Assembly (NCBI GenBank): GCA_947184155.2
Contig: CAMXCT020000898.1
Span: 62,001 to 126,000 of the forward strand
Length of the DNA: 64,000 bases
From: Cladocopium goreaui
Lineage: Eukaryota; Sar; Dinophyceae; Suessiales; Symbiodiniaceae
Direction of reading: 5' to 3'
Positions 25,295-46,350 of the stretch are shown one piece after another; within the stretch, counting starts at the first letter, position 1; the number at the start of each line of letters is the position of its first letter. Under the pieces are notes generated by a model. It made no database searches and was not told where the DNA came from. It saw only the letters and a list, made by a program, of their open reading frames with translations. The position numbers and the translations under genes are program-made.

Positions 25295-25299
25295 AAACA

Positions 25300-26226
25300 C
25301 TAAATCTTTAAAAGTTCATGCCTCATCACCAATCTTGGGTAATCAGTTAATTTGTAATATTGTTGGTTCAACTTTTCTGCAATCTCTTGCACAACATAAT
25401 AACCATTCAGCCAGTGGGAAGTTCTTTCTTTCTCTGTAATTGCTTTCTTTCTCATTATCTTTACTTTGTCTCCCACCTCTAATGTTGGGTATATTCTTTC
25501 TTTCTTTGCCTTTGATGCTACATTAATCATTGCCCTATATTCATGTTTCTCTTTCCTTGCTTGATTAGGTGTCATACCTGTAGCGGAGTGCTTCATCTTA
25601 TCATTGTATGTCAGCATAATTTCTAAATTGTAATCAACCCATTGTATGTTTGCCTTACCCTTTTTTTCATCAGCCTCTACTCTTTTAAAAAGCATATCTT
25701 TGTATGTGCGTATAAATCTTTCAGCAAATGCTGGGTGTCCTCTAGTCCTATGTAAGGTTATACCTTCACCTTCCACATCATCCTTAAAGTCTTCACCTGC
25801 TATTGCTCTCTCATCATCTGTATAAATCATTTTAGGCTTCTTACCCATTTTCCCTAATGCCTCTTTAGTTGCTTCAAGGACATCCTCCCCATTTTTAGTT
25901 TTGATTTGAACAACAACGGCATACTTGCTCAAAACATCAATACACACTAACGCTCCTCTGAACTTTTGTTCCTCATCAAAATCATAATACCCCATAAAGA
26001 ACAAATCTATCTGATAAGTATGATTATTTTTTGGTGCTGTGAAGGAATTATACCCTCTTTGCTTTGCTTTTATTTCAACATTTTTTCTAAAGAATTGCCT
26101 TACATCATCCATAGTAATGCTACTATCTTTCTTCTTGCTGTCTTCAAGGGTTGTTTTTAAAGAACCAAACCCAGCCTTATCAAAATATATATCATTGATT
26201 ATTTTTTGCTTCTTACTATCAGTCAT
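25300..26226 (-). CDS. rve-family DDE integrase (Polinton/retroviral-type)
   Basis: Predicted to join viral DNA to the host chromosome. The 308-residue product starts at the ATG at 26226; an upstream in-frame extension to 26325 overlaps the GIY-YIG gene and is less likely. The catalytic triad is visible: Asp74 in TYQIDLFF, Asp137 in IYTDDERA, and Glu169 in AFAERFIRT, giving the D,D,~35E spacing of the rve family. The C-terminal part (EVGDKVKIMRKK, then HWLNGYYVVQEI) resembles the small SH3/chromo-like barrel of Polinton and Ty3-type integrases. No N-terminal HHCC zinc finger is evident. The reading frame is intact, unusual in this element. It lies 38 bp downstream of the GIY-YIG gene on the same strand and is the last viral gene before host-like DNA. 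Confidence 0.9.
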   Translation of the reverse strand: MTDSKKQKIINDIYFDKAGFGSLKTTLEDSKKKDSSITMDDVRQFFRKNVEIKAKQRGYNSFTAPKNNHTYQIDLFFMGYYDFDEEQKFRGALVCIDVLSKYAVVVQIKTKNGEDVLEATKEALGKMGKKPKMIYTDDERAIAGEDFKDDVEGEGITLHRTRGHPAFAERFIRTYKDMLFKRVEADEKKGKANIQWVDYNLEIMLTYNDKMKHSATGMTPNQARKEKHEYRAMINVASKAKKERIYPTLEVGDKVKIMRKKAITEKERTSHWLNGYYVVQEIAEKLNQQYYKLTDYPRLVMRHELLKI

Positions 26227-26264
26227 TATAGAATAGATGATATAATAAGTAAATATCATATCAT

Positions 26265-26818
26265 TTATTCTTCTTTTTGTTGCTTCAGCCCGTCTTGGTG
26301 CTTTTTTGTCTTGATGTGGTGCCACCTATTTTGAAGTTGAAAAGAACTACCGCAATCACAATCAACTATTGACATCAACTTGTCTCTGTTTTTATGATAG
26401 TTGTTTCTTCCTCTTTCATTGGCATTGTCTTTATTTTTGATATGCCATTCTTTGTTCCACTTGGCGCACTTTTCTTTGTTGTCTTTGTAATATTCTTGCA
26501 GTGTTCTTCCTGCCACTTCTTTATTGACACAAGCATTGTTTTTGATGTAATAGCCTTCTCTTTGTAATAGTTCAATCTTGGATTGGGTCGGGAACAGTTC
26601 TACCAGTTCTATTTTACAGTTTTCTACTCCGAATTCATCAAATAACTGACAAATTGAATGTTTATATGAACACTTGCCGTCTAAAAAGGTTTTATAGACA
26701 CCTTTATGTCTCCAAAATATTTTGCTCAATTCTTCACAAGTGCTTCCGTAGTAGCACTTTGTGTAAGCAACATCTGTAATTAAATATATTTTCCTTTTTC
26801 ATACTTATTGTTCTCCAT
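26265..26818 (-). pseudogene. GIY-YIG endonuclease with C-terminal zinc finger, frameshifted
   Basis: A GIY-YIG family nuclease. An ATG at 26818 opens a short frame that runs into a stop after about 11 codons. In the next frame the family pattern continues (IYLITD, then KCYYGST), followed by the usual R/E helix region and a C-terminal C-x-C ... H-x5-H segment (CDCGSSFQL ... HHIKTKKH). The open part without the start is 26265-26729. One missing A in a run of A at 26789-26792 accounts for the break. A TTAAAGAGAT promoter-like motif lies 13-30 bp upstream of the ATG. In PLVs such genes act in homing or replication; here the function is inferred from the family only. Confidence 0.78.
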
Positions 26819-26830
26819 ATATCCTAAACA

Positions 26831-26848
26831 TACCATCTCTTTAAAACC
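26831..26848 (-). promoter_or_regulatory. Putative viral promoter motif TTAAAGAGAT
   Basis: Read on the minus strand, GGTTTTAAAGAGATGGTA lies just upstream of the GIY-YIG ATG at 26818. The same TTAAAGAGAT core with AT-rich flanks occurs upstream of the genes starting at 34605 and 34950. Three occurrences at matching distances suggest a shared, probably early, viral promoter element. Confidence 0.5.
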
Positions 26849-26851
26849 ATT

Positions 26852-27727
26852 TTACATTGATATTTTATTTGAAAAAGCGCAATTACATTGAACACACAGT
26901 GGAATACAGTTGCTTTTATAATGTGCCAGTTCATTATTTAATCTTTGGCAACTAATATTTGATGAAACCTTGCCATCTTCAAAATCAATAACCAATGGTT
27001 CATTACAATTTTCACACTGGGTATTCATCATATCCATCAGGAAATCCACATCAACATACTCATCATCATCTATGGGTCTGTTGCTTTTCTTATCTTGCTC
27101 AATATAGTTCAATACTTTATTTTTGAAATATGTTTCTACTCTTAATCTGCTCATATCATTTTCATCCACATCATATTTATGAAACTTAACTCTATTCAAA
27201 TCTCTTGCCCTGCTGACCGAAGTCCAATACCAGTTCTTGCTACAATACCATTTGCTCCAGTCATATATCACAATGTCATCATCTACACTACAACCTTGTT
27301 TTGAATGTGGCGTGTAGCAGTAAGCATATATGAAATGCTTTCTCAACACTTTCATTTCTATATTTTGCTTCACATCAGTTGCCACATTTTCTAAAACAAC
27401 AATATCGCCAACGATATTTGAAATCCTAAATTTGAAATTCACATTAAATTGTGTGCCTTTAGTTTTAATATACTTCCGGCATATTACATATTCACCAATC
27501 ACATATTCATCTTCTATGCCTTTCATCTTTCTCATTTTGCTACTCACCTCCCTCCAAGTCTTGTTTGTATAAGCAATGTTGTTTTCACATATCTCATTGC
27601 CATCACTCCATCCAAAGTATTTTTCAATGACATTAAGGACTGGCTCATTGTTAAAAATCAATCTCTTAATATCATAAAGTTTCTTTCTGTCTTCTTCAGT
27701 CTTCAACTTCTTACATTCATAAAGCAT
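26852..27727 (-). pseudogene. Replication gene, segment 4: SF1 helicase C-terminal motifs plus HNH-like zinc domain
   Basis: C-terminal part of the large replication protein. It is in the same frame as the segment ending at 27746 and is separated from it only by a TAG codon at 27746-27748, so it was once continuous. Late SF1 motifs are visible: IAYTNKTWR (motif IV region), YTPHSKQGCSVDD (motif V, H-S-x-Q-G) and YWTSVSRARDLNRV (motif VI, SRAR). The end (CENCNEPL, SCQRLNNELAHYKSN, LCVQCN) matches the layout of HNH / endonuclease-VII-like domains: two Cys pairs around an H-x3-N core. The usual N-terminal partner is upstream at 27746-28147. Whether the TAG is read through is unknown; a nonsense mutation is simpler. 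Confidence 0.75.
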
Positions 27728-27745
27728 AATATTATTTTCAAAAAT

Positions 27746-28147
27746 CTAGTCTATACAACGGTCGGCATACTTCCCAAAAGAAACAACATTGCTTACCCTC
27801 TCTGGGTTTTTTAATTGTTTTGTGTCCCCTGTTGCTAATATAATCTTATCAGGATTGGTTTTACAAAAGTTCCAGATGAGAGCCCACTTGCTTACATTGT
27901 GAAAGTATATCTCATCAAACACTATGACATCAACATCAGAATAATCAAACTTCTCAAGCCTCTCATCACCATAAGATATTCCAAAAAACTTGTTTATTGC
28001 CATTGCTTCTGCTCCACACTCTTGTTTCAAATTATTAGTAGGCACAACAAACAAGACTTTATAATTTCTCACCTGTAAATGCTGACATATAAAACTCTTA
28101 CCTGTTCCCGGCACATCACCTCTAATCATCAACCTCCTATTAGTCAT
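27746..28147 (-). pseudogene. Replication gene, segment 3: SF1 helicase ATPase core
   Basis: 133-residue open segment carrying the first helicase motifs: Walker A GDVPGTGKS at residues 10-18, motif Ia VVPTNNL, Walker B VIVFDE with the DE pair at 78-79, and motif III ATGDTKQL at 105-112. The GD-x2-QL form of motif III indicates superfamily 1 (RecD/Pif1-like). It begins exactly at the second copy of a 14-bp tandem duplication (28134-28161) that shifts the frame relative to the polymerase-like segment upstream, and it ends at an in-frame TAG. Its apparent ATG is therefore a by-product of the duplication, not a true start. Confidence 0.8.
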
Positions 28148-28161
28148 CTCCTATTAGTCAT
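28134..28161. repeat. 14-bp perfect tandem duplication that breaks the replication gene
   Basis: CTCCTATTAGTCAT occurs twice back to back (28134-28147 and 28148-28161, plus strand). Because 14 is not a multiple of three, the frame of the upstream polymerase-like segment stops inside the second unit, while the helicase frame restarts with the same five residues (MTNRR). Counting the unit once makes the two frames continuous. This is a clear insertion-type lesion. Confidence 0.9.
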
Positions 28162-30210
28162 AATATGCTCATCTATGATTTCATCAGTGTTCCATTCATC
28201 CTTGACTTTACCGGTGTCATTTTCATACTCAGTAATGTTACATAATACACTGGGTTGTTTGCTAAATGCCTTGCTGGGAAAATTGAATTTATCAGACCAC
28301 CTCCAATAACCAATCTCACTGCCAAACTTCAACACCTCCCTTGCTTTTGCTAAATTACATTTATCTATAACAAAGGCACCAGTTTTTACTGAATACACCA
28401 TTACATCATCCCTCATAAGTGTTTCATAAGCCTCATTCATATCAAAATTATGATGTTGTAAAATCAGTTCTTTGATAAACCTATATCCATTCATCAAAGT
28501 TTTTGTATCGGAAATGTTTAAAACATAATGCTTACATTCATCAACAATTACAGGAATATCTTTCTCATTAATCATAGGTTCAATGACATTACCTTTATCA
28601 TCAAATTCAAGCAAACAATCATCATCATTATCATTCACTTCACCATCCCATTTAGTTTCAGTAATAATACTTATATCACCACCGTATTTTTCCTGATAAT
28701 AAAAGGCATCAACCATTTTTGAAAACACCACCGATTTTTTAGCAGTGTTAGTTTGCTTTTCTAATAAGCCGATGTTGATACAAGCAATCATTTTCTTTTT
28801 CAATTTATCTTTCTCCTCATCCTCATCCAGTTTTAATTCCCACAGTTCATTAATCAGTTTTTTGTAATTAACTTTGTATGTGTTAGATGGAATTTTGTAA
28901 TAGATAATTTCAACATTTTCAGCATATGTTTTCAAAAACTTACCGTAAATCAAGTTATAAGTCCTACTGAAAAATAGGTGTCTCACTTTGCTTTTAACAA
29001 GATATAATGTTAAAGCATTCATCTTGTTAAAATCATTCTTTGAATAATCATACTTCAACCAGATGTCAAATTCAGAAAAGACAGGCACTGTAAAAATATC
29101 CATTGTAGATTTAGTGTAGGCTTTCCTCCTATCTAATTCAATGTGTGTATTCTTTCCTTCAATGATGCTTTCAAAATATCCACTGGGAGCAATGCTATGT
29201 GCCATTGAAAATATTTTCAAATCATCATTATGATAGTATGACTTGTGATTAGGATTGAACATACCCTTATTGAAATTAAAATATGCCTCATTTACTTTAT
29301 TAAACATATCAGCATTCCTACTATCAATACAAGTATCAACAGCACAGTCTATCAAACTCTGGCTTCTGATATTCAAAATTAATCCATTAAATTTTACCTT
29401 GAGTGATGCTACATTGCCACCTGCTCCCATTATGATTTTAGGTTCATACTTTGCCCTCTTGAACTCACAAAAAACTGTATTCAAGTTTTTGCCACTAACT
29501 AAATTTACTTTTTCTTCATCTTCATTCTCTTCAACTATACCCATTATGTCATCAATGCCATTGAAAACAACATATTTAACTGGTTTGTCTTTGCTGTTCA
29601 GGCGAAAGTCGGTAGAAGCACATATTTTCATACTTTCCTCTAATTCTTTTTGTGCTACGCTCTTGATGTTGTCATTCATTGTGTAAATGTGGTTGCCTTT
29701 AATCATCCCAAACAATACGGTTATGTTTTTGTTCTTATTCAAAGGGTCATAGGTATAAACCTTTTGACCAATACAGTTATATAATCTGACAGTCAGTTTA
29801 AATTCTTCAAACACCGGTTCCATATCTTCAACTGATGCCCCATTATCTTTAAATTCTTCTTCATTTAAATTCATTAGTTTCAAAATTTTATCCCTTGTCA
29901 TCCTTTTGCTCTCCCACTTTTTAGTATTCATCAGTGTCTCTTCATAATGGTCTATCAGTGTGTTAATCCAGCACTCACCGTCGGTGTGTTTCTTATTTAT
30001 GATGGCATCAACCAAATTATCACTAGCAACATCCATTTCGGTATTGATGGTGTAGTGATACATTCCAATCTCATTGCCATCCTTCAGTCTCTTCTTTGTT
30101 TCATCATCTCCACCTCCTGTGTTTGATACATCGCTTATGTCTAAGATCTTGATGGCACTTGTGTAGTCTTCAAGGTTGGTATTATTCTTCAGGTCTGGGT
30201 GTTTTTCAAC
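28144..30210 (-). pseudogene. Replication gene, segment 2: divergent family-B DNA polymerase-like region
   Basis: The longest open segment of the element; the first ATG is at 30063 but the frame is open up to the insertion at 30210. Three patterns match polymerase B in order (numbering from 30063): D311-R-R-K-A-Y-T like motif A, K-x3-N-x-GLLEK around residues 424-436 like motif B, and YSVKTGAF around 557-564 at the place of motif C, where related divergent polymerases carry K-T-D. If homologues have that Asp, the Gly here would be a loss of a catalytic residue. The segment leads directly into the SF1 helicase (after the 14-bp duplication). It would copy viral DNA. The polymerase call comes from motif order and is less certain than the helicase call. 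Confidence 0.6.
30201..30210. repeat. Left copy of 10-bp target-site duplication
   Basis: GTTTTTCAAC, identical to 33897-33906, immediately left of the insertion. It lies in codons for V-E-K of the replication gene. Confidence 0.8.
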
Positions 30211-30453
30211 GAGACGAGTGTGTTACCACGTTATAAACGTCAATTTCTCAACCATTTTTTCAAAAGTTGTAACCATTTTATAAAAACATTGCTTACCATT
30301 TTAAAAAAAAATGAATTTATAATATATATTTTAAGTTTTCCTGACTGCAATTGGTTCACAGTCAATTCCTGATAGTACACTTGGGCAAGTTGGAGCCGCC
30401 TTGGTCCATCAAATCCAGCCGCTCGATGAAAAATATCGGATTTCATTGTTACT

Positions 30454-32867: not shown

Positions 32868-33133
32868 GACAGAATTATGGAAAAAAAAAAAAAACGTTCA
32901 ACTTAGACAGGCGGCGCCTGCGTCCGATTTTTCCATAATTAGGTTTTTCCCCATAAGGGTTCAAAATATCCCGGAAGTGATCCGAACCTTTTTTTTTCCA
33001 TAATTCTTGGAGGTGGCCATTATTTCCATAATTGTTTTTTCCTGTAAAATCAGGGGGCTAGGGCAGATTGACCGGTTTTTCCATAATTATTTTTTTCCAT
33101 AATTATTTTTTCCATATTTTTTTTTCCATAATT
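32868..33133. mobile_element. Small inverted-repeat element, GACAGAATTATGGA family, copy 1
   Basis: Starts with GACAGAATTATGGAAAAA, ends with a run of TTTTCCATAATTA motifs, and holds the palindrome CAGGCGGCGCCTG. It shares these with copy 2 at 33447-33572. Longer and more degenerate than copy 2. Confidence 0.5.
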
Positions 33134-33816: not shown

Positions 33817-34605
33817 CTACAAATAAGATATATAACGTAGTAATATAACCACAAGAAATAGTATACTATGTCTAAACGTGGTTACACCACCACCTGGTTT
33901 TTCAACTAATCTCTTGAATAACTTATCAAACAAAACTGTATCGTGTATCACTTCAAACTCTTTGTATCTACCTTTAGTATTTGTACTTCTGGGCCGTGTA
34001 GCATCTATTCCTGTCTCCTTTATCCAAGCCTCTCTGGTGTTCAGTTCATCAAAGTGTTTTCTTGTAATTTTGTTAGGGTTGTCCTTCTTCAGTCTTAACC
34101 TATCGTTCAGTCTTTCCATCCATAAATCAAACTTATCTCTGACCACATACTTATCCACCAGTGTTTCATTCAGTTTATCCTCATCTCTTACATTCTTCAA
34201 GTTCATCTGTATAGGTTGCTCCATACGAAGTAAATTGTGCCAGTCTCCTTGGTTGTCTTTAAAGCCTCTCTGTCCTCCTGCTTTGTGCCCATTATCAAAA
34301 CCGTAAAGTTGAAATCTTACAACATAGTCCTTCTTGTTTCTGTTTGTTGCCATTCTCTCATTCAGTGGTGCTCTGCCTTCAATCTGTTCAAACTTTTTAT
34401 CAAATCTTTTTTTAGCAAAAGTTGCTGTTCTCTTGTTGTCGCTCATCAGGCTGTTAATCAGTTTCTGGGCAGTTTCTCTTTGTGAAATCTTCCTGTCTTC
34501 ATAAAATTCTACCACCTTATCCACTCTGTATTTAACATCTTCTTTAGCACCTCTGGCTAGACCCTTCAACACTTCTACATTTCTCTTTATATTTTTTGAT
34601 GGCAT
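33817..34605 (-). pseudogene. Replication gene, segment 1: N-terminal part, cut by the insertion
   Basis: 262 codons are open, but only 34605-33897 (about 236 codons) is viral. The last ~26 codons read into the inserted element. The product is highly charged (MPSKNIKRNVEVLKGL start, many K/R/D/E) and I recognise no catalytic motif in it. At the break it reads LFKRLVEK; on the other side of the 3.7-kb insertion, at 30210 and in the same frame, the sequence resumes with LVEKHPDLK. The shared codons lie in the 10-bp target duplication. It is therefore the N-terminus of the polymerase-helicase gene, which would span 34605 to 26852 and encode roughly 1,350 residues. A TTAAAGAGAT promoter-like motif lies upstream. 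Confidence 0.75.
33897..33906. repeat. Right copy of 10-bp target-site duplication
   Basis: GTTTTTCAAC, identical to 30201-30210, immediately right of the insertion. Counting it once restores the open reading frame across the site. Confidence 0.8.
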
Positions 34606-34633
34606 TATAATATATTTATATTATATTATAATA

Positions 34634-34677: not shown

Positions 34678-34950
34678 TTATTCTGATGTATCTTCAGTGT
34701 CTCCATTATTATAACTTGCTCTCAATCTGATACACTTGCTTGATTGCTGGTGTCTCTTGAACTTTTCTTTTGTGATGCTACACCCGCATAAAGGACATTC
34801 AACTTTGACACTCAAAAACTTCTTGTAGTATTCCCTGTGGTAATACATGTTGTATTTTTTCAAGTCCGCTTTTTTATCAATATCCACCTGTATTAATGGC
34901 TCAATGATTACATATCCGTTTTCATCAATTTCTCTGTTTTTGACACTCAT
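34678..34950 (-). CDS. Small zinc-finger protein
   Basis: 90 residues. The only motif is a C2H2-type finger near the C-terminus: CPLCG, then K-x2-H-x6-C. The middle is rich in Tyr and Lys (YYHREYYKK). Similar tails occur on the GIY-YIG proteins of this element, so this could be a free-standing relative of that C-terminal domain. It lies between the PLV structural-type genes and the replication gene, with a TTAAAGAGAT motif on each side, suggesting early expression. The reading frame is intact. Function unknown; nucleic-acid binding is likely. Confidence 0.65.
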   Translation of the reverse strand: MSVKNREIDENGYVIIEPLIQVDIDKKADLKKYNMYYHREYYKKFLSVKVECPLCGCSITKEKFKRHQQSSKCIRLRASYNNGDTEDTSE

Positions 34951-34970
34951 TACTATGATTTATATAAGAA

Positions 34971-34995
34971 TATCTCTTTAAGTAAATTAAGACAC
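34971..34995 (-). promoter_or_regulatory. Putative viral promoter upstream of the small zinc-finger gene
   Basis: On the minus strand TGTCTTAA, six bases, then TTAAAGAGATATT, followed by TTATATAAATCATAG and the ATG at 34950. Matches the motif at 34634-34659. Confidence 0.55.
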
Positions 34996-34997
34996 TA

Positions 34998-36224
34998 TTA
35001 TTGTGCTTTATACATATCCTTCAACTTCTGCCACAGGCGTAGTTTATAAACCTCCCTCATTTGTTTCAGCATTTGCTTTTTCTTACTATCATTACCTTTT
35101 GAAGCAAACCAAGTTTTATAAGCACTATCAAACTGTTCATACTGTTCTTTTGTAATCATATCTTTGTTTTTAGCATTTACGAACTCTTCTCTTAATCTTT
35201 GAACACCTATTGTGGATGCCCCTACCGGTTTTTGTATTGTCTTTCTCTTGCCACTATCTTTAGGTTCATCAATTTCATCATCTGCCTCCGCTCCTCCTAC
35301 TTCTAACTCTGTTTTGTTTTTGTTCCTTTTCTTTCTCATTTTAGGTTCTTCTTCTGGACTGCTCCCATCTCTTTTTTCAGCATTCATTCTTTCAGTTCCT
35401 TCTCTGAAATGTTTGGGTCGCGAAGCTCTCGCGCCGCTGGTTGCGGGTCGCCCTGCTTTGCCTCTTGGTTCTATTGTTGTTTAAGGAGATGCTCTTTTAG
35501 ATGAACTACTTACATCCATAACCTCTACAACGGGTAAGGCTTGAGAACTGCTTGAAGATGCTGATGCCACTGCTTTAGGCTTGGCTTTGGGTTTTGCCTT
35601 GGCTTGAAGCATAACTTCATCATCAGTTGCCATACTATACATTTCAGGTTTTATAGGAGCAAAAGTTCTTGGTGGGTTGATGTGGTGTATCTGTTCAGGT
35701 ATTGTGGGTTTGCTCTGTTTGAAGACTTCCCCTCTGTGGTTCATTGCTGTTTCTTCTCTTCTTTTGGTTGCTGTATTTGCTCTTTGTGTCAGTTCAGCAT
35801 TCAATTGAGATGCTTGTTGGGTGCTTGAAATTGGTATTGTCGGTGTGGCCTGTTGTGTTAATTCTTCATCTACATTCATAGGCTGTGTTGGTTGTGCTAT
35901 TACCGGTGATGTTGTGGGTAGTTGCTGTAGTCTTTCAGTGTGATATGTTCTACCTGCTGTTCTTACATTTTGCCTTAATAGTAGTTCCGACATTTGTCTC
36001 AATAATAGTTTTCCCTGCTCTTCTTTCAGTTGTTCCATAGCATCGGCACCATCAAATATACTGCCTTCAGGTGAATTTCTGAAAAAAGTTGCGTCTCTAT
36101 TTGGCAATGCGCCAGTCAGTTTTTCATTTTCTGATATTAAATTGGTGATTTCTTCATAAGTTGGTCTTCTGCGTAATCCATATTTGGACATTTTATTTAC
36201 ATTCTCTATCACTGCTGTTGCCAT
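34998..36224 (-). pseudogene. PLV-conserved hypothetical protein split by an in-frame TAA
   Basis: The first part (36224-35481, 247 codons) begins with an R-R-R-P-T-Y-E-E-I motif followed by LPNRDATFFRNSP, a pattern I associate with a protein found next to capsid genes in PLVs. It continues with Gln/Thr/Pro-rich low-complexity sequence. A TAA at 35481-35483 ends it, but the same frame stays open for about 160 more codons to 34998. That second part (first ATG at 35387) ends with a basic helical domain (GASTIGVQRLREEF ... YKLRLWQKLKDMYKAQ). I read the two as one ~408-codon gene broken by a nonsense codon. Separate genes are possible but the same frame and zero spacing argue against it. Probably virion-associated. 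Confidence 0.65.
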
Positions 36225-36261
36225 TATAATATAAAATTGTGTAGAAATAATTTTATATTAT

Positions 36262-36588
36262 CTATGTAAAATTCAGACTTCTAAATTGATTTATTTGATG
36301 CTGTAAATGTTCTAAACTATTGTGGTTAAGATTGTCTCTTTGTATTTCATTATTAATTCTGTCTAATTGATTTCTATAATTCACTCTGTTATTTGCTTCA
36401 ACTATATCATTTCTTATTGATATTAATTTATCTCTTGTCTCTTTTTCATCTAATTGTTTCTTCAACCACGCCATATACCTTGTGTCATAATGTTTAAACA
36501 TACCACTGCCAGTTGCTTTACCTGCTGGGGCATTCATCTTCTTTCTAAAATTTGTTGTAGTGTGTTTTCTCTTATATGCCTGAAACAT
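36262..36588 (-). CDS. Small hypothetical viral protein, coiled-coil
   Basis: 108 residues, intact. Basic N-terminus (FQAYKRKHTTTNFRKK), then a long charged helical stretch with repeated Asn/Arg/Leu heptad-like spacing (RNDIVEANNRVNYRNQLDR). No known motif. Lies between the MCP gene and the 36224 gene on the same strand, so probably expressed with the structural genes. Confidence 0.6.
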   Translation of the reverse strand: MFQAYKRKHTTTNFRKKMNAPAGKATGSGMFKHYDTRYMAWLKKQLDEKETRDKLISIRNDIVEANNRVNYRNQLDRINNEIQRDNLNHNSLEHLQHQINQFRSLNFT

Positions 36589-36699: not shown

Positions 36700-38267
36700 T
36701 TAGTCATAGACAATGCTTCCGTCAGAGCGAAGCTCAAGCACTGTCTCTGAAACAAGGGTAGTGAATATTTCTTCAATCTGTTCTGTTTCCGCCAGTGTTC
36801 CTTCTGTTCCTTTGATTTTGAAAGTGATTAAGCTTCCCATCTTTGTATTAACGCCACTAAAGGCTAAGTCTGACATGTTCTCCATTGAGAAGCCAATGAC
36901 AAATTTATTAGAACGATACTGCTTATAACTGATATTCAGTGAGTTTTGTTCCGGATTTAAGTAGTGTAATGTCCGCCTCAAAAAATAGAATGCTTCGGAA
37001 AGTGATTGAACTTCGAACTCAGGAAATTTCTTATTAGAGATTTGAAGTTGGTAAGTAAGTGCCCTACTGTTGTCAGCAAACCCTTTTCCTTGTTGTAATG
37101 GCAATGTATCTGCTAAAGGACCGTCAGTAATCTCTCCATTAATCATAGGATTGTAAAAATAGTTCCATCTCTTATAAATATAATTATCTGGCATATAGTA
37201 TCCATAGCGACTTCCACCCCTTGGACTTCTATAAAGGGTGATGAAAGCATTAGTCAGTTTAGAAGCGGATTTAACAATATTCATATTGATTTCACCTCCA
37301 CCAGTGTTGAATGTTTGTGTAATAGTGTGGTATTGTGGGATGATAAGTTTAATGATTGTCCTTCCAATAAGTGTTTTGTAATGTTATTATCAACAGTGTT
37401 GTCAAGTGTGATTACTTCTGCTCTAATGATTACATTGTTAATTTTCCAACTTACAGATGTATTGCCTCCTTGAAAGTAATAACCTTGCTTGTCAGTTTCA
37501 GTATTGGGGTTTGTTTGGGCGTCTCCTTGGGGGACTACAATAGGTTCATTACCATCTGATACAATAGTAAATTCTAATTCTAATGGTGCTACTCTCAATG
37601 GTAAGTAGTAGTTGCTTTCAAGTAATCCACAGCAGGGTTTGTGAGAAAGTCGGGCTTTTCCATTAGCACCGGGGATGCCTGATAAACTATGTCTGGTAGG
37701 TCTAAAATCAATTCTCCCATATTCATTGTGGTCTGCGGTTGTATCAACAGTTGCTACACCACCAGCATTAGTTGCTCCTGATGTTGTATAATCAATAAAG
37801 TTATTTAAACCATTGGCATACAAGTGGTAGTCATCATCATAAGATGGGTTTGCTGAACTTTCTATGTCATCCATTTCATTAACATCTTTTGACTTGAATG
37901 ATTTAAATAACTCACAATGGCGGTTATATTCAATAATGTCTTGAACCATCTGACCTCCTACAGTTGCCCTATATCGGTTAAAGAATGAATGAAGACCACC
38001 TAAAGGTCTTAAAAACTTTTCTCTTGTCCCATCAGTGTTTTGAAGTGTGGCAAATAGACGAACACTGCTTAAATCCAGATATTGGTTTGCCTCTCCGCTG
38101 ATGTAAAATCTTATGTTCTTGTTTCCTTGATTACTGGCATAGATGTTAGACCCTGATGGAAAATAATTTACAAACCGGCGGTCTGTGATATATTGTGCCG
38201 TTTCTGGGATGCCGAAGTTAAGATTATTAATCATAACATTGGAACTTTCGCTAATAATATTCTCCAT
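36700..38267 (-). pseudogene. Major capsid protein (double jelly-roll type), split by a -1 frameshift
   Basis: Forms the viral shell. Two overlapping frames, 38267-37281 and 37284-36700, together read as one ~520-residue capsid protein. The N-terminal half has the PLV-type start (IPETAQYITDRRFVNYFPSG) and strand-rich sequence. The C-terminal half ends in LVSETVLELRSDGSIVYD, the usual tail of PLV capsid proteins. The frames cross near 37345-37356, where the second frame is already open and reads LIIPQYHTITQTFNTGGGE before its apparent ATG. The crossing bases on the minus strand are A TTA AAC, close to a -1 slippery heptamer; loss of one T from TTTAAAC would also explain it. Neighbour genes carry similar one-base losses, so mutation is favoured. 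Confidence 0.82.
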
Positions 38268-38341
38268 AACTTATATATTTAAATTTAGATATTTTATATT
38301 CTATATCATTTCTTTTTATGTGGGATTAACTTAACATTTTT

Positions 38342-38543: not shown

Positions 38544-39113
38544 TTAAGAATGTATCGCCTTTATATGTTTCCTCATATAGTCTCTTGAAAGTTCTTTTCT
38601 GCAGATTTCACATTCAATTATTTCTTTGTTTTTAGCAAGCATTTTTTCCTTTCGTTTTTCATAAGATTTTCTCTTTTGTTTCTTGTATTCTTCTGGGTTA
38701 TTCTCCCTGTATTCTTTTTGCCTTTCCAGCACTTTCGGTTTATTATTCTGGTAGTTAATTTTGTTTTGTTCTGATTTTCTTTCTTTGTGTTCCTTATGCC
38801 ATTCTTCTCTTGTTCTACCTGCTATTTGTGAATTTAATGTGCCATATTTTCTTATATATATATTCTCCTTCTATTGCTCTCAACTGTTCTTTATTTTCAC
38901 AGGGTGTTTCCTTGATGAGTTCTATATAAAAATGTTCCACTCCTAATTCATTTATTTTTTGTAGAATTTGTAGTTTTTATATTGTGTTCCCGTTCTTGCT
39001 TTTCTATGTCCTACCATTCGCATATTTAATGACTGACAAGTAGAACCGATATAAACATCATCATCTACATCATTCAAAACTTGATAAATCTTTGCCTTGG
39101 AATAATCCACCAT
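38544..39113 (-). pseudogene. Second GIY-YIG endonuclease with C2H2 finger, two frameshifts
   Basis: An ATG at 39113 opens a frame with the GIY-YIG core: KIYQVLND, then VYIGSTCQSLNMRM and an R/H-rich helix. It stops after 53 codons; a second frame continues the fold (LGVEHFYIELIKETP ... EGEY), and a third frame reads through REEWHKEHKERKSEQNK to a final C2H2 finger (CEICRKELSRDYMRKHIKAIH). The last frame alone is open from 38732. At least two indels, near 38950 and 38865. Distinct in sequence from the GIY-YIG gene at 26.3-26.8 kb, so two separate acquisitions or an old duplication. Confidence 0.72.
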
Positions 39114-39154
39114 TATATGTTAATATATGTTTTTATCTGTTTAAATGTATATTT

Positions 39155-40020
39155 CTATATTTTAACCGGATGATTTGGATTGATGCCATTACTAATTTTT
39201 GTTGTAGGGTGTAAATGCCACTTGCCTTGATGGGCAAAATTTATATAACTATGTGCTAATAAAGGGTTTAGTTCTTTCCAGTTTGAAGTTTCAGCATAAC
39301 CATCTAACAAACTCACTACATCATTGGGATTACGCAGGTCAATTCTTCTTGGGTCTTGTTTCCCTTTTCTTCTTGATTTTATGGTTGGTGTGGCAAAAGT
39401 GGTAGTAGCAAATCTGTTAGGCATATCATTGTTTATTTGATTGACCACTGCTGACGCTAAACTGTGTGATACAAGACGCTTAACATCAGGGTTTTCTTTC
39501 AAATACTTCACTACATCTTGGTATTTTTCACTTGCTTTTATGTTTCTGGTTGGGACTAATAATAAGTCATCCATAATATCTCTTGTCAATGAACCATCCT
39601 TGCCACCAGTCCCAGCAATATATAGTGTAGAACCAGTTTTATATAACCCATCAGGACTGTCATAAGCATTCCATAATCCTCTCCTATCTTCAATCTTGTT
39701 TTTGTTTTGGATGTTTCTTCTTTGTAGAGGGTTGTATTCTTTCTGAGTTCATCATCTAAATTTCTTGTAAAGTCGTTCATTCTTGCGTTCCAGTCTGCGT
39801 TCTTTTTATTGTAATATTCCATTATGGCATCTTTGCCCTGTTTCATTAACTCATTGAATGCTACTCTACCTAATTTCTTTGCTAATTCTTTCATTTGGTC
39901 TCTTGATAATACATTTTCTATTGCTTCAACTGCCACTATTCTTTCCATTGCTTCTCTACCAAACTGTCTTGCTACTTGTGCTAATGCTGTTCTTGCTACT
40001 CCACCAATAAATCCTATCAT
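39155..40020 (-). pseudogene. Lipase-like (alpha/beta hydrolase) viral protein, frameshifted
   Basis: The first frame (40020-39586) opens with a Gly/Ala-rich, possibly membrane-active N-terminus (MIGFIGGVARTALAQV) and a helical region up to NLDDEL. Near 39740 the coding frame shifts; the new frame runs NPLQRRNI ... LWNAYDSPDGLYKTGSTLY, IAGTGGKDGS, then DIMDDLLLVP and VSHSLASAVV, to the stop at 39155. The order (GT loop, helix, H-S-L motif, later D and H) fits the class-3 lipase-like proteins of PLVs. Around the presumed nucleophile Ser the usual G-x-S-x-G reads S-H-S-L-A, so both Gly residues are missing and activity is doubtful. Divergently transcribed from the penton gene. A role in membrane handling during entry or exit is an inference. 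Confidence 0.62.
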
Positions 40021-40068
40021 TTATATTAATGTTTATAAATTATAATCTAAAATAATAATATACTAGCA
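40021..40068. promoter_or_regulatory. Divergent promoter region between lipase-like and penton genes
   Basis: 48 bp, almost pure AT (TATTAATGTTTATAAATTATAA), separating two outward-facing starts. Must hold both promoters. No TTAAAGAGAT motif is present, which fits late expression. Confidence 0.45.
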
Positions 40069-40930
40069 ATGATGAGTAATAAACTAACTTACAAGAAAAT
40101 ATTTATAGATAGCACCTACCGGTTGCCATCATCAAGGTCAAGTGCCGACTTCTCCATTGAGTTAAATGAAATTTAGAAACACCAGAGAGAACAAAAATGT
40201 ATATAACTGATGTATCTATTCCAGCAGTCTGGAAATCCACCGAAATAAATTTCTATGAGTATCTCTATGTAATGATTTATGATGATAGCAATGTTTTTGT
40301 AAAGAATTTCAGAGTATATTTAGGTAATAAAATATATTTCGCAAGTCAGTTATGTTTTGATATTTCAGAAGGATTAAACAGCAACACAACGGATTTATCA
40401 GCAGGTGGGATATTTGTTTATTCTTATGATGAAGCAACAAGAACCGTAGAATTTAAAATTAAGGAAGGATTAAATTATAAAGTTAAAATACCAACAGATA
40501 CTGAATTAGCAACTTATGTTGGTGGAAGTTGGGATACTGGGACTGTCTCATATAATAGTAGCAATCCAGTTTCCATAAATTATTTGTTGAGTAATTTTGT
40601 TCCATCATCTCCATTAACAACTTGGACAAGTTCATATCTCAATCTTATACCGTTTAGATATTTATTCATTACTTCTAATGCTCTTACAGATTATCACTAT
40701 TCTGCTGCAAATTCATATTCATCAGCAATCATAAGGAAGGTGCTTTGCACTGAACAATTGGGTGGAGTGATTAACGATAATTCACCACCCCATCAAGAGG
40801 ACTACATTGATATTGGGGGAAGAATTTAAGAAAATTAGATTTTAAAATAACTGACGCAAAGGGTAATGTTATGAATTTATATGACATCCCAGTTCAGTCT
40901 GCTTTACTAATCACTTCGTCCAGTTATTAA
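40069..40930 (+). pseudogene. Penton / minor capsid protein, two frameshifts
   Basis: Single jelly-roll type vertex protein of PLVs. ATG at 40069 (or 40072) begins KKIFIDSTYRLPSS and SADFSIELNE, the typical start. One A is missing near 40170, so the frame hits TAG at 40174; the next frame continues TPERTKMYITDVSIP and forms the main open segment 40197-40829. At 40826 another shift occurs; the third frame gives RKLDFKITDAKGNVMNLYDIPVQ and stops at 40930, matching the usual end L-D-F-x-D-x-x-G-N. About 285 residues in all. First gene of the plus-strand late-like cluster. Confidence 0.75.
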
Positions 40931-41039
40931 AATCAAAGCAACTCCCAAGAAAAATAATAAAAACTAAATCATCATTCCATATATTTTCCGTCAAACTAAA
41001 TATATAGAATATTGAAAGAATTTCTATAGAACATTATAT

Positions 41040-41663
41040 ATGAGTATAAAGGTGGTTGATTTACAAAATGAAGCAGTAAAAGAAGAAGCGCCAACACTTG
41101 AACCAATTGAAGAAGCAAAAGAAGAAGAACAACCTGAACTGGTTAATGAAGTAGATGAAGAACCAATTGAACAACCAAAAGAAGAAGTAAAAGAACAACT
41201 GAAAGAAGAAGTAAAAGAAGAAACAAAACCAAAAAGACAAACACAGAAGGATAGAATACAGTGTCCTAAATGTCTCAAAGAAGTCTCATTGAAGACATAC
41301 AGGTATTCACGCGAAAAAAACTGCGGTGGCCAACTATCAGAAAAACCAGTCAAACCACACGCAAAACCCAAAGCAAAACAAACAGCAAAACCTAAACCTA
41401 AACCACCTCCTGATAGAGCCGTAGGCTCTATGAGCTGGGGCAACAAAGCCCCACCTGAAATATATTATAGCGATGAAGAAGAAGAAGTGCCAACCCAACC
41501 TTTAATAAAGAAAAAGCAACCAGTTCCAGTTCAACCCATCAACCCAGTTGATGCTATGGCTCAACACTATTTGGTATTACAACAACAATTCATAAAACAA
41601 AAGCAAGAAAAATACAACAATTTATGTATGAATATGTTTTCTTCAAAAACTAAGAGAAGATAA
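41040..41663 (+). CDS. Acidic/basic protein with C-x2-C zinc motif
   Basis: 207 residues, intact. Residues 10-70 are Glu/Lys repeats (coiled-coil or disordered). Then a conserved core CPKCLKEVSLKTYRYSREKNC, a treble-Cys zinc-binding pattern, followed by a Lys/Pro-rich linker (KPKAKQTAKPKPKPP) and a helical end. The same core occurs in PLV and virophage-like proteins of unknown function. Lies between penton and fibre on the plus strand; preceded by TATAGAATATTG, similar to TATAGAATATAA upstream of the MCP gene. Possibly a DNA-binding or packaging accessory protein; this is inference. Confidence 0.65.
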   Translation: MSIKVVDLQNEAVKEEAPTLEPIEEAKEEEQPELVNEVDEEPIEQPKEEVKEQLKEEVKEETKPKRQTQKDRIQCPKCLKEVSLKTYRYSREKNCGGQLSEKPVKPHAKPKAKQTAKPKPKPPPDRAVGSMSWGNKAPPEIYYSDEEEEVPTQPLIKKKQPVPVQPINPVDAMAQHYLVLQQQFIKQKQEKYNNLCMNMFSSKTKRR

Positions 41664-41665
41664 AT

Positions 41666-41691
41666 ATAAAATAATATCTCAATTATTTTAT
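41666..41691. terminator. 10-bp hairpin between the acidic protein and fibre genes
   Basis: ATAAAATAAT, six-base loop, ATTATTTTAT. Begins just past the TAA of the upstream gene and 7 bp before the fibre ATG. Candidate transcript-end hairpin. Confidence 0.5.
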
Positions 41692-41697
41692 TATTTA

Positions 41698-44321
41698 ATG
41701 GTTCAATTGGACGGTGGCAATACTATCATAGGAACAGAATTTATCAAACTTTTAGACGGGTTCATCAAATTTAGCAACAGAGCAGTATGTAAATACAGCA
41801 GTTGCTAATGGTGGAGTTGGTGGAGGAACAGGCACGACTGACTTAACAAATTATTATAATAAAACTGAGACAGATGCTTTATTAAATAATAAATATAATA
41901 AAACTGAGGCTGACACATTGTTAGATACAAAACTGAATGTAAATAATCCTCAAAATATGGAAGGAACATTGAATATAGGAAGTGTAGGTGGAACATCAAA
42001 GATTATTATAAATGCGGTTTCATCGTCAAATGATTTTTATGTTAATGGCGATGCACAAGTATTAGGTAATCACTTAGTAGCATCATTAGATAGTAGCGGT
42101 TATATCAAAGGTTCAAATATTCAGTCCAATACATTTAATGCTCTAAATTTAAATGATATACTTTTTCAAAGCAACAATGATACTTATATACAATATGATG
42201 TTTCTGAAACTAAAATTGTAGCAAGCAAATTAATCCAATGTGGAGGCAATCTTAAAACACAGGAGATATACACCATAGCACCATTAGATTTAGTGATTAA
42301 GAGAGGAGGTGTTGATTACATAACCTTAGCAGATGGTCAAATACAATTTAACCAACCTACAAATTTATCTATAACTCCTGACCTTTCCGACTGTGTAAAA
42401 TTAACTGGTGAAGCATCCCAAACAATAGCAGGTAATGTTGTTGTAGGTGGCACTCTTAATACAAATACACTAAACAGCAATGGCAACAGTGATATAGTTT
42501 TACAAAGAAACGGAGTTGAATATATGAAATTAGAAGGGACACTACAAGCAGTAGAGATGACAAGAGGTGTTAAATCAAACACTTATGATAGTATAGGTAA
42601 TGCCGATGTTAATTTTAGAAGAAACACTACTGATTTCTTTTATTTAAGAAATAACACATTAGATTTAAATAGTGGTATATCATTATCAGCAGATGGAGCG
42701 AGTATAAATGAAATATCATCAAAACCAGCATCAAATTTAGTAATTCAAAGAGCAGGAATTGATTATATAACACTGACTGATGGACAAATTCAATTTAATC
42801 AACCTACTAATTTAGCAACAGGGGCGATACATCAAACTGTGTTAAATATACTGGTGAAACATTACAGACAATAGAAGGTGATGTAGTCATAGGCGGTGGG
42901 GCCGGTGGGGCTCAATTTGGTAGTTTTGATTTAACTGTTAATGGAACTTCTTATTTTCTTTCAGGCATAGAGTTAGTCCTTGGGGGGACAGTTGTTTTAG
43001 GAACTGGTAAAGGTTATATCCGTTCTATTAATATAGGAGGTGGTAATACTGCTTATGATTATTGTATTTTTGCTTCTGGTGGCGTCCATCGGTTTTATAT
43101 TGGTGGTAGTCCATTCCCTCAACACTTAAAATTTCAATTGTCATTAACACAGGCATATTTCAATGTAGATGTTGTATGCCATACTGAATTACAAACTGAT
43201 GTCATCAATACAAAAAATGCTACTAATGTTGATTTGGTGTTTAAAAGAAACGATGTTAATATCTTTAAACTGAATACAAGTAATCAAATACAATTGCTAG
43301 GTGGTAATGAAACATCCTTTGTGTATGAAGAGGCATATTTTGATTTGGTTAATTACAATGTATTAAGAATTACAAACACTGAAAATGTTGATAATGGTAT
43401 TATTGCGTTTGGTGTTGGTGATGTGTTGGATGTGTTCCAGATTTTTAAGACAGGTATAACATCAACAGTTGAATTATCATTACCTCAGGTTTTATGTAAT
43501 AGTTTTGATAGTTTTGCTGGTGATAATGATGTAGTTTTCAATAGAAACGGGGTTGAATTCTTTAGATTAGGAACTGGTTATTCTACTTCAAATGGAGCAC
43601 CAACCAACTTATTAAATGTTGATAGTAGCACTGGTGTTTCTTCGGGCTGGATGTTTGCTAATGCTTTTGCTAATAGAAGCGACAATACAAATACTGAATT
43701 TAGAGGTGCTATTAGTGGTGGTAGTGGTTGGGGTAAAATTTATATGTTGTATGAGCACGTTGATGAAAATTTACATTTCTATACCGATGTTGAAGTAGAT
43801 GAAGGTAAGAAGTTATAGGTCAAAATCGCATATACTGTGGTGGTAATTTAGTGATTGATATGTCAGGCACTGTTTTGAACTCAAGACAAAATACAACAGT
43901 TGTAGCAGGTGTGTCTTTATCTGGTGAGTTAGTCGATACAAGTGATAAAACTAAAAAATATGATATTAAAAGTGTTGAGCACAATTTTACAGATATAGTA
44001 AAACAGATTGAACCTAAAACTTTCAAAATGAAAGATGAAAAGGAAATAGGCATAAGTAAAAATCATATTGGTTTTGTTGCTGATGAAATTGAAGAAGTTA
44101 TACCAAAGGATTTTGAGAATATTGTTATGTAAAATGATGAAGGTATTAAACAGTTAAATTATGTGAAATTATCTTCTGTTTTATGGGGTGCTGTAAGAGA
44201 GCAACAATCAAAAATAGAGCATTTAGAAGCAACAATGTTTGAGATGATGGAGGAGATAAAAGAATTGAAAGGTAAAGGTAAAGCAAAAGCAAAAGCAAAA
44301 TCAAAACCTAAAGATAATTAA
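41698..44321 (+). pseudogene. Fibre-like protein with C-terminal S74 intramolecular chaperone, four lesions
   Basis: About 870 codons in several frames. An ATG at 41698 is followed by an extra G near 41760. The main frame then has phage-fibre style repeats (YYNKTETDALLNNKYNKTEA) and at least five degenerate repeats of the form D-x-V-x-x-R-N-G-V-E-Y-x-x-L. Further shifts lie near 42827 and 43815. Open segments are 41918-42874, 43138-43818 and 43851-44132. The last parts carry the S74 pattern: SDKTKKYDIKSV, IGFVADEIEEVIP, then after an in-frame TAA (44130-44132) NYVKLSSVLWGAVREQQ and a Lys/Ala tail to 44321. S74 domains help trimer fibres fold and then cut themselves off. A surface attachment role is inferred. 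Confidence 0.7.
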
Positions 44322-44337
44322 ATTATAAACCTATAAT

Positions 44338-44550
44338 ATGGGCAATAAACCAAGTTCAGTTGAAAACGGTTGTATTCAAGAATTGAGTAAAATTAATGAA
44401 GAAGAGTTGGACATCAGTAGAATAGATTAATTACAAATAAAAGCCTTAAAAGAAATCAATAGCAAAATTGAAAAATTGAACAAGGAAAAATCTGATAAGA
44501 TTATGTATAAACTACCTGCTATTCAACCTTGTAGTTGGAGTTTGATTTAA
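44338..44550 (+). pseudogene. Small hypothetical viral protein with in-frame TAA
   Basis: Begins MGNKPSSVENGCIQEL; the start M-G-N-x2-S could be a myristoylation signal. A TAA at 44428-44430 divides it, after which the same frame continues with a short coiled-coil (IKALKEINSKIEKLNKEK) to the stop at 44550. 70 codons in total. No family recognised. The stop codon lies inside the hairpin at 44546-44578. Confidence 0.45.
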
Positions 44551-44578
44551 TAATATTAAAGACATTAATATTATTAAA
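44546..44578. terminator. Perfect 14-bp hairpin between converging genes
   Basis: TTTAATAATATTAA, five-base loop AGACA, TTAATATTATTAAA. Lies between the plus-strand fibre/small gene cluster and the minus-strand packaging ATPase, so it could end transcripts from both sides. Confidence 0.65.
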
Positions 44579-44622
44579 CTAATGATTGTAAATATTCTTG
44601 GTATTTGTTGCTTCTTTATTCT

Positions 44623-45437
44623 TTATATATCTTTTGTATCATCTACTAATATCCTTTTGTCATATCTAATCATAAAAACCCTATTAATATCACTCTCCAT
44701 CAAATTTACAAATAAAAAACAAAACCTATCTTCAGTTGCCAGTTCATAAATTTCTAGTAATGTCTTTTTAGCACTGTTGATATTTTTATCGTCCATCCAC
44801 AAGTTTTTCTTTATCAATAGCGCTGACAATTCTTCAATCATTGTCTGTATCTCCTTATAGTTTCTCATTTTGAAAAAGTATAGTTGCCTACTATTTACCC
44901 TAATAATAGTGCTCAATCCATTGAACTTTTGTGTGGAACTCACCACATTGACCCCAAAATGTCTTCCTCTGATGTAAAGAGCATTGAGCATACTGTTGTG
45001 TTTTGAAAATGAAACCGCATCAACAAAATCATCAACAACAATCAATGTAGCAAACAGTTTTTTCAATTTATTTTTCTTTTGATATTCACTTAATTTGTAT
45101 TCTTGTTCAAGTATCTCTTCCAAATCTTCTTTATGGAACTCATCAAAATAAACCTTCTCTTTCTTCGGATTTACTTTTAGTGTTTTTTCAATGTATTCTT
45201 TCACTGGGTGCCAGACACTATCAACGTGGATACTAGCAGAAAATATAAACACCCTCTCAAAACAATTTCTGTAATATCTAATATCATATTCTGTAGTAAG
45301 ATAGATTTACCAGAGCCAGACGGTCCCACTACAATTTGTGAAAATGGTATTCTAGGGGCTACATCATATTTTGATTGTTTAAACTCATACTCTGCTGATT
45401 TATGTGGTTTAATAATTGGAACATCAAGTTTTTTCAT
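44623..45437 (-). pseudogene. A32/FtsK-type DNA packaging ATPase, one frameshift
   Basis: Pumps viral DNA into the capsid. The frame from 45437 holds Walker A VVGPSGSGKS at residues 36-45. Near 45273 one T is missing, so this frame ends at 45201 while the other continues YRNCFERVFIFSASIHVD and runs to 44623. The second part has the Walker B TLIVVDDFVDA, then R-G-R-H-x-G and V-S-S-T-Q-K, which matches the arginine/sensor region of PLV, virophage and NCLDV packaging ATPases. About 271 residues if joined, a normal length. Starts within 380 bp of a divergent gene and converges with the fibre cluster. Confidence 0.83.
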
Positions 45438-45809
45438 ATAAATTATTTAAAATTAATTTCTAATATTTATTGTAAATGGCATATCTTATTTTACCTGAAT
45501 AGGGGTCGGTAGAATATGGAACAGACTGCCATTATTACCCATCATAAGAATGTTAATTAGAAAAATAAAAAAAATCCACCCCTTGGGCTCTTGCTTCTTT
45601 TTCACTCCCGACACGGTCTCTTTTTGCTATGACAACAAGCAGTAGAAGATTTGAAGCCTTTTTGCTCTTGAATTTGTTTGATGCTATGTTTCAATCAGCA
45701 CAGTTCATTTTCTTTGACATTTACCTACCGCCCCTTATGGATTTGTGTTTGCGCCTAAAAATCCATATATAATTAGATAGTAGTAAAATATATCATCTAA
45801 TTATATAGG
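45438..45809. other. Intergenic region between ATPase and right-end genes
   Basis: AT-rich near both starts; the centre (45540-45750) is less AT-rich and has no clear gene. A very short plus-strand reading frame at 45478 (MAYLILPE, TAG, GSVEYGTDCHYYPS) might be a tiny decayed gene. Holds the promoters of the two divergent neighbours. Confidence 0.4.
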
Positions 45810-46004
45810 ATGAGCAGTTGTGAAGTTTTTGATAGTTATATCAATACAATAGATGTGATTGAAGATAGTGTCATTGATGATACTAAATTTCCAATTGTAA
45901 GAGATAATAAAATAAAGCAGATATTCAGGGTAATGCTGGAGTTTCTGAAGGTAATTATAAATTATCTTAAGTATTATATAAATGCCACTAAAGAAAAGCA
46001 GTAA
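45810..46004 (+). CDS. Small hypothetical viral protein
   Basis: 64 residues, acidic N-terminus (MSSCEVFDSYINTIDVIEDS), more hydrophobic C-terminal half (FLKVIINYLKYYIN), which could be a short membrane-associated helix. Overlaps the start of the next gene by 23 bp. No family recognised. Confidence 0.45.
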   Translation: MSSCEVFDSYINTIDVIEDSVIDDTKFPIVRDNKIKQIFRVMLEFLKVIINYLKYYINATKEKQ

Positions 46005-46350
46005 AAGCAAAATACCAAAAAAGCCAATCCCTGAAGATTTTGAACTATCAGATGAAGAACCCGCTGTTGTCAATCTGAATGAGGAACAAAAACTGACATC
46101 TAAAAACATTGTATTTGAATGTCCCTTGTGTAATGGCAAACTACAGATGAGAAATGAAATTGAAATCAACCCCAAGGGCATCAAATGTACTGTAAATGCT
46201 CCCCCTGTAGTTTCAAAATCAGCAAGAATGATAAAACAATGAATGTAAAAAAGGATGATGACGGTGAAATTGTTTTAGAAAGTGAAGACCATAGCATCAG
46301 TTTCAGTTTTAACCGTCAGATTACACCAGAGGACAAAAATATGGCGAGGT
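45982..46350 (+). pseudogene. Zinc-binding viral protein, frameshifted and truncated at the host junction
   Basis: Begins MPLKKSSKSKIPKKPIPED, acidic middle, then CPLCNGKLQM. Near 46183 one A is missing; the next frame continues YCKCSPCSFKISKND, which completes a four-Cys zinc ribbon, and reaches QITPEDKN before the sequence passes into host DNA at about 46343-46352. No natural C-terminus is left, so the viral element is cut here. The fold resembles small viral transcription-factor or zinc-ribbon proteins; function unknown. Confidence 0.55.

What the first reader, a model, noticed from the sequence alone, without database searches (positions are those of the whole stretch)
25295..46350. Endogenous Polinton-like virus in a dinoflagellate-like genome
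One 21-kb AT-rich block holds integrase, MCP, penton, packaging ATPase and a polymerase-helicase gene, plus GIY-YIG nucleases, a lipase-like protein and an S74-tipped fibre. This is the core set of PLVs, Polintons and virophages. The surrounding DNA has dinoflagellate features. If it is not already described, it documents a dsDNA virus lineage that infected or integrated into this host.
Basis: partly seen in the sequence, partly recalled or inferred. Interest (0 to 1): 0.92.

Follow-up and report, generated by a model that had tools for sequence, protein, structure and literature searches.

The report
Decayed polinton-like provirus in a dinoflagellate
A damaged 22-kb DNA virus sits in the genome of what is probably a coral-symbiont-type dinoflagellate; it is one of at least dozens of relatives in that genome, of a kind already described, and the capsid genes of those relatives show signs of having been kept functional as the family spread.

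The parts
21958..23625 (+). Repeat R, first copy (1.67 kb), ending 94 bp left of the provirus
   Evidence: blastn self-comparison: 95.8% identical to 46367-48046; four full-length matches, all in C898 and C1794, among the 40 of 2189 candidates scored
23720..25299 (.). Left terminus (starts AGTTAGACT) with inverted-repeat sequence and terminal non-coding region
   Evidence: Stretches shared by other copies and found inverted at opposite ends
25300..26325 (-). rve-type integrase, one open frame of 341 codons including upstream codons
   Evidence: PF00665 3.1e-7; NCBIfam IS481 5.7e-11; 40% identical to a relative on IMG/VR contig L001
26265..26798 (-). GIY-YIG endonuclease with C-terminal zinc-finger-like motif
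   Evidence: PF01541 1.5e-3, under the Pfam cut-off; zinc motif by eye
26852..28150 (-). Helicase part of the replication protein; in-frame stop between ORFs 26852-27745 and 27746-28150
   Evidence: PHROG Dda-like helicase 4.4e-10; tblastn with P0121 98.4% over 28147-26855; Pif1 folds
28144..30222 (-). vOTU plus pPolB palm part of the replication protein; out of frame with the helicase at a 14-bp duplication (28134-28161); motif-C acidic residue replaced in this copy
   Evidence: phi29 polymerase fold of relative P0121
30211..33896 (.). Insertion of about 3.7 kb in the replication gene, flanked by a 10-bp direct repeat, with inverted 11-bp motifs (one mismatch) near its ends
   Evidence: both edges also present in C1794
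30453..32129 (+). Tandem array of a 31-bp unit, 54 copies, inside the insertion
33898..34620 (-). N-terminal part of the replication protein
   Evidence: tblastn with P0122 91%
34678..36588 (-). Four small ORFs (34678-34959, 34998-35480, 35481-36257, 36262-36588), unassigned; the first has a zinc-finger-like motif
   Evidence: no Pfam match
36700..38270 (-). Major capsid protein (double jelly roll), one frame change near 37344-37377
   Evidence: P0001 tblastn 96% and 95% in two frames; fold; 399 homologues
38544..39160 (-). Second GIY-YIG-like gene, fragmented, pieces in two frames
   Evidence: by eye
39155..40020 (-).
40069..40927 (+). Conserved protein of about 285 aa, putative penton, in three frames here
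   Evidence: 532 homologues; tblastn with P0225
41016..41663 (+). Lys/Glu-rich ORF with a CxxC motif
41756..44318 (+). Fibre protein ending in an S74 domain and a coiled-coil-like tail, in three frames plus an in-frame stop at 44130-44132
   Evidence: PF13884 4.2e-13; last piece placed
44623..45446 (-). FtsK/A32-like packaging ATPase, in two frames
   Evidence: phrog_2666 1.4e-9 and 0.036 for the two pieces; P-loop matches
45982..46366 (+). Last viral ORFs; provirus cut off here (shared with other copies up to 46344)
46367..48046 (+). Repeat R, second copy, abutting the truncated viral end

Best explanation
This is an inactivated, right-truncated provirus of a polinton-like virus family with many copies in this genome. 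Inferred life cycle. The linear virus DNA with inverted repeats is copied by protein-primed synthesis: vOTU would cut off a priming domain, the palm would polymerise and the fused helicase would unwind. The DNA is packed by the ATPase into a double-jelly-roll capsid with S74-tipped fibres. It is inserted into TA-rich host DNA by the rve integrase, which makes a 5-bp target duplication. This copy was then damaged: insertion in the replication gene, frame changes, stops, a catalytic substitution and loss of the right end. Shown here: gene set, folds of relatives, inverted repeats and target duplications in relatives, lesions, a second copy of the locus, low dN/dS of MCP between copies. Inferred: the enzymatic steps and virion formation.

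For: Mobility: C67 copy of 21,990 bp with 686-column inverted repeats (92.6%) and ATAAG on both sides. Of five copies with both ends examined, four have the same 5 bp on both sides and one does not.

Decay and host residence: lesions; C1794 shares the flanks, the right truncation, both insertion edges, the 14-bp duplication, the stop region and the truncated MCP frame.

Selection: 48 MCP loci, 1128 pairs; median dN/dS 0.08 (33 pairs, dS 0.1-0.3), 0.09 (81 pairs, dS 0.3-0.6), 0.12 (71 pairs, dS 0.6-1.0), 0.10 (855 pairs, dS 1 or more, near saturation).
Confidence: 0.93

Rival explanations
1. The family spreads only as a transposon within the host; capsid genes are passengers and no virions are made.
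For: Many copies, inverted repeats, target duplications and an integrase; very close pairs at different loci (for example C983 and C3968, dS 0.005); higher dN/dS among the closest pairs.
Against: Capsid dN/dS about 0.1 over synonymous distances of 0.1-1, which passengers would not keep; 55 of 122 MCP match rows lie in frames of 514 aa or more without a listed stop (my count of the table; one of them is an odd 4046-aa frame).
Confidence: 0.15
2. The frame changes are sequencing or assembly errors and this copy is really intact.
For: Frame changes outnumber stops; the penton interval and one fibre interval contain short homopolymers.
Against: A second contig shares the MCP truncation, the 14-bp duplication, the stop region and both insertion edges; of the six frame-change intervals examined four have no homopolymer (a seventh interval examined there proved to be a stop); right truncation and insertion are structural.
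Confidence: 0.03
3. Free-virus or metagenomic contamination, or misassembly, rather than integration.
For: GC step at the block.
Against: The locus is on two contigs with shared flanks, and other copies lie between other flanks; MCP matches are on contigs of up to 2 Mb.
Confidence: 0.01
4. The 3.7-kb insertion is a splice-competent, introner-like element, so that the replication gene is not broken there.
For: GT and AG dinucleotides lie near the two edges by eye; a five-residue stretch is encoded on both sides with partly different codons beyond the 10-bp repeat (by eye).
Against: The 10-bp direct repeat, inverted edge motifs and 54-copy array look like a DNA transposon; the gene is broken elsewhere anyway; no transcript was available.
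Confidence: 0.04

Closest known systems
'Dino' group endogenous PLVs of Bellas et al. 2023 (PMC10120064)
   Same: Dinoflagellate genomes with many MCP copies, 15-30 kb insertions sometimes of different GC, often inverted repeats, YR or rve integrase; [quoted passage not shown] one section)
   Different: For this family the domain fused to the helicase is assigned here to vOTU plus pPolB palm; direct MCP comparison with their clusters was not possible
pPolB-S1H fusions ('Tlr1-like helicases') of PLVs and transpovirons (PMC11071308)
   Same: vOTU followed by palm with a changed first motif-C Asp, then SF1 helicase (passages)
   Different: The fold alignment to phi29 polymerase begins at its residue 6, so a remnant of the exonuclease fold may persist between vOTU and palm; those authors report the exonuclease domain as lacking. 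Not confirmed by profile comparison
OmPLV of Oxyrrhis marina (PMC12721341)
   Same: Dinoflagellate endogenous PLV of about 25 kb, low GC, broken genes, helicase-polymerase fusion, GIY-YIG (Results and Discussion sections)
   Different: OmPLV has helicase before an exonuclease-containing pPolB, a tyrosine recombinase, inverted repeats of about 230-860 bp and no target duplication; here helicase follows the palm, the integrase is rve and 5-bp duplications occur. That paper also shows a dinoflagellate polinton from S. kawagutii of 21.2 kb, which may be the nearest published element

Membership tests
Polinton-like viruses (PLV, Aquintoviricetes) | Double-jelly-roll MCP | tested here: met
   Fold of 96%-identical relative P0001: (low mean pLDDT, second roll weaker)
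Polinton-like viruses (PLV, Aquintoviricetes) | FtsK/A32-type packaging ATPase | tested here: met
   phrog_2666 1.4e-9; weak P-loop matches including Pox_A32 0.021
Polinton-like viruses (PLV, Aquintoviricetes) | Minor capsid/penton single jelly roll | tested here: inconclusive
   Conserved family but no PDB profile match and only two stray weak Pfam matches in 20 members; not folded
Polinton-like viruses (PLV, Aquintoviricetes) | Linear element of about 15-40 kb with terminal inverted repeats | tested here: met
   Relatives C67, C983, C975, C5815, C3968 of 21-26 kb between terminus words, with inverted matches of 64-686 columns; in the window only the left one was found
pPolB-S1H fusion (Tlr1-like helicase) | vOTU with catalytic Cys and His, then pPolB palm, then SF1 helicase | tested here: met
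   Cys in 17 of 17 and His in 18 of 19 rows with letters; fold matches to phi29 polymerase and Pif1; vOTU by motif only
pPolB-S1H fusion (Tlr1-like helicase) | N-terminal terminal-protein-like domain | not tested
   The N-terminal part (33898-34620 here; P0122) was not modelled
pPolB-S1H fusion (Tlr1-like helicase) | No exonuclease domain | tested here: inconclusive
   Fold alignment spans phi29 residues 6-500; sequence profiles show nothing
Canonical polintons/Mavericks | pPolB recognisable as PF03175 with exonuclease | tested here: not met
   No Pfam match in the 692-aa piece at E<=0.1. The same genome holds 6 PF03175 matches elsewhere
Canonical polintons/Mavericks | rve integrase with short target duplication | tested here: met
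   5-bp duplication in 4 of 5 relatives; not testable in the window's own copy
Dino group (Bellas 2023) | MCP in the Dino sequence cluster | not testable with these tools
   Cluster sequences not held; only Skav-named relatives of the replication protein

The most novel reading that the evidence does not exclude
Two readings are not excluded. First, the many copies record repeated colonisation of one dinoflagellate lineage by capsid-forming viruses that were still functional between integrations, so the genome is an archive of a living virus family whose capsid is under strong selection. Second, its replication enzyme keeps a degenerate exonuclease fold between vOTU and palm, making it an intermediate between polinton polymerases (with exonuclease) and the helicase-fused polymerases of PLVs and transpovirons.
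Probability: 0.35. Interest if true: 0.65.

Novelty: new member of a known kind. Interest (0 to 1): 0.42.

Why it matters
Bellas et al. (2023) left open how many protist elements without a detectable polymerase replicate, noting helicases fused to an unknown domain. For this family the domain looks like a vOTU plus protein-primed polymerase palm with conserved motifs A, B and C. The termini (AGTTAG, TA-rich target, 5-bp duplication) give a means to bound and date copies. The capsid dN/dS pattern makes 'virus or transposon?' testable in one genome.

Tried and rejected
LED NOWHERE. Scans of IMG/VR with the MCP piece and MCP profile and the ATPase piece, and of GTDB contigs with the MCP profile, found no relative; the replication profile found one (L001, 34% identity, with an rve integrase and weak ATPase-like P-loop matches, E 0.002-0.003, on the same locus). 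tblastn of the MCP piece against phages: none. MCP and penton profiles against PDB sequences: none; integrase: none; ATPase piece: nothing credible. Repeat R against plasmids: none. Rfam: none. The window's own second inverted repeat: none above shuffles between 24300-25900 and 45700-47400 (best 25, shuffles up to 29), and between 23500-25400 and 45900-51000 only repeat R and weak matches in AT-rich repeats. Profile comparison of the replication alignment with phi29-type polymerases: nothing.

REJECTED. The left boundary at 25,295. R copies as the provirus's own long terminal repeats: R begins at the truncated right end but lies 94 bp outside the left terminus, and no full-length R outside C898 and C1794 was among the 40 of 2189 candidates scored. 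Homopolymer sequencing error as the general cause of the frame changes.

ROWS DROPPED. For dN/dS, 48 of the 122 rows were used, chosen for near-complete coverage and not obviously repeated; 74 rows were left out. Two of the 48 had internal stops, and those codons were skipped. The first dN/dS run had three of eight loci in the wrong orientation and only its correctly oriented pairs are meaningful. TSD: 5 copies with both ends examined; C3890 and C3004 had one end only.

NOT ANSWERED. The copy number of the 3.7-kb insertion, the copy number of the replication gene and the right-end search in the own genome: the machine was busy at every try.

The fibre has three frames and an in-frame stop, and the second GIY-YIG has pieces in two frames; the best PBCV-1 chain is a capsid chain, not named as VP54; relatives measure 21-26 kb.
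Full report
WHAT IS THERE. The block is real: coding parts at 33% GC between flanks at 43%, with 17 stop-to-stop ORFs of 150 aa or more (insertion left out) against a shuffle mean of 0.09. Pfam, PHROGs and NCBIfam point to an rve/IS481-type integrase, a GIY-YIG nuclease, an SF1 helicase, a viral packaging ATPase and an S74 domain; several matches are below the curated cut-offs. The MCP pieces have no Pfam or PHROG match and no meaningful PDB-sequence match, but the N-terminal piece has 399 homologues in the protein database (best 120 listed, 67-96% identical, most of 513-539 aa).

TRUE ENDS. The own genome (G000, 1.166 Gb, 6202 contigs; window = C898:62001-126000) let the ends be compared. Other copies share stretches of window 23,713-25,283 beyond the integrase and carry part of it inverted at the far end. 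Termini begin AGTTAG, mostly preceded by TA-rich DNA. Copy C67 runs from 40,859 to 62,848 with inverted repeats of 686 columns at 92.6% and ATAAG on both sides. C983 (ATAAT, allowing a 4-bp terminal repeat), C975 and C5815 also have the same 5 bp on both sides, the last two in TA microsatellites and so weak; C3968 does not. Thus the window's left end is 23,720. Its right end is missing: viral similarity stops at 46,344 and repeat R begins at 46,367, whereas copies C983 and C3968 continue about 2.3 kb to a terminus.

DAMAGE. The MCP is in two frames, the putative penton in three, the ATPase in two, the fibre in three plus an in-frame stop, the second GIY-YIG in pieces of two frames, the so-called lipase in two, and the replication gene carries a 14-bp duplication with a frame change, a stop, the motif-C replacement and the 3.7-kb insertion. 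The insertion is flanked by a 10-bp direct repeat, has inverted 11-bp motifs near its edges and holds 54 copies of a 31-bp unit; database relative P0122 is continuous across the site. Integrase and first GIY-YIG are in single frames. Contig C1794 carries the same locus: 99.95% over the 8 kb of window 19,672-27,671, 99.5% over 45,486-48,906, then 91-95% further right with a part missing, the same truncated MCP frame, the 14-bp duplication, the stop region and both insertion edges; the distance from MCP to integrase is about 0.7 kb longer, presumably in the tandem array (coordinates). It is a segmental duplication or second haplotype; either way those lesions predate it and are not random read errors. 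Penton, fibre and second GIY-YIG lesions were not compared.

FAMILY HISTORY. The MCP query gave 122 scored match rows (244 candidates; some loci in two pieces) in this genome, 55 of them in frames of 514 aa or more without a listed stop by my count; the integrase end gave 40 scored of 252 candidates. For 48 MCP loci median dN/dS was 0.08-0.12 for dS between 0.1 and 1; most pairs (855 at dS of 1 or more, 51 undefined) are near saturation; the closest pairs are higher (0.29 in 28 pairs, 0.20 in 8), and the window and C1794 differ by 1 synonymous and 4 non-synonymous changes. The sample favours well-preserved copies (48 of 122 rows) and pairs are not independent. The simplest reading is that capsid function was maintained between integrations and lost afterwards in this copy. 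Whether selection acted in free virions or in a capsid-dependent mobile state cannot be separated here.

HOST. Not named. Two relatives of the replication protein, P0140 and P0169, are Skav gene models; Haro et al. show a 21.2-kb polinton from S. kawagutii. Spliced-leader relics were not found in the window. A dinoflagellate, probably Symbiodiniaceae, is inferred.

RELATION TO WHAT IS KNOWN. Bellas et al. [quoted passage not shown] Haro et al. 2025 (Results and Discussion read) described OmPLV, which differs in domain order and integrase. A 2024 study of Breviolum minutum (PMC11071213, passages) found Maverick/Polinton repeats enriched at chromatin domain boundaries. The element is a new member of a known kind; the additions are its domain assignment, its termini and target duplication, and the capsid selection result.

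Noticed in passing
window 21958-23625 and 46367-48046: A 1.68-kb repeat R (95.8% identical) lies on both sides of the provirus; the full-length copies among the candidates scored are only in C898 and C1794, while a piece of about 100 bp of it is dispersed over many contigs (2189 candidates, 40 scored).
   Followed up: partly
window 30201-30210, 33897-33906 and beside them: Next to the 10-bp direct repeat, the same two residues are encoded on both sides of the insertion with different codons; chance or a trace of how the insertion arose is unexplained.
   Followed up: no
window 54092-55421 (-): Two flank ORFs (243 and 200 aa) match FAD-dependent oxidoreductase (PF01266 1.6e-17 and 4.5e-4): probably exons of a host gene.
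   Followed up: partly
G000:C5989 (15561, 63377, 106774, 110787): Four MCP matches with the same identity and frame length lie on one contig, suggesting tandem or segmental multiplication of a provirus.
   Followed up: no
G000:C3931:17021-17923: One MCP match is listed inside an open frame of 4046 aa; possibly masked N read as open frame.
   Followed up: no
G000:C1122, C218, C85, C1871, C5992, C871: Six matches to the canonical pPolB family PF03175: a second kind of polinton may live in the same genome at lower copy number.
   Followed up: no
L001 (IMG/VR 3300049043_000066): A 66-kb environmental contig carries a replication-protein relative (34%), an rve integrase (40%) and weak ATPase-like P-loop matches: a distant member of the family outside this assembly.
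   Followed up: partly
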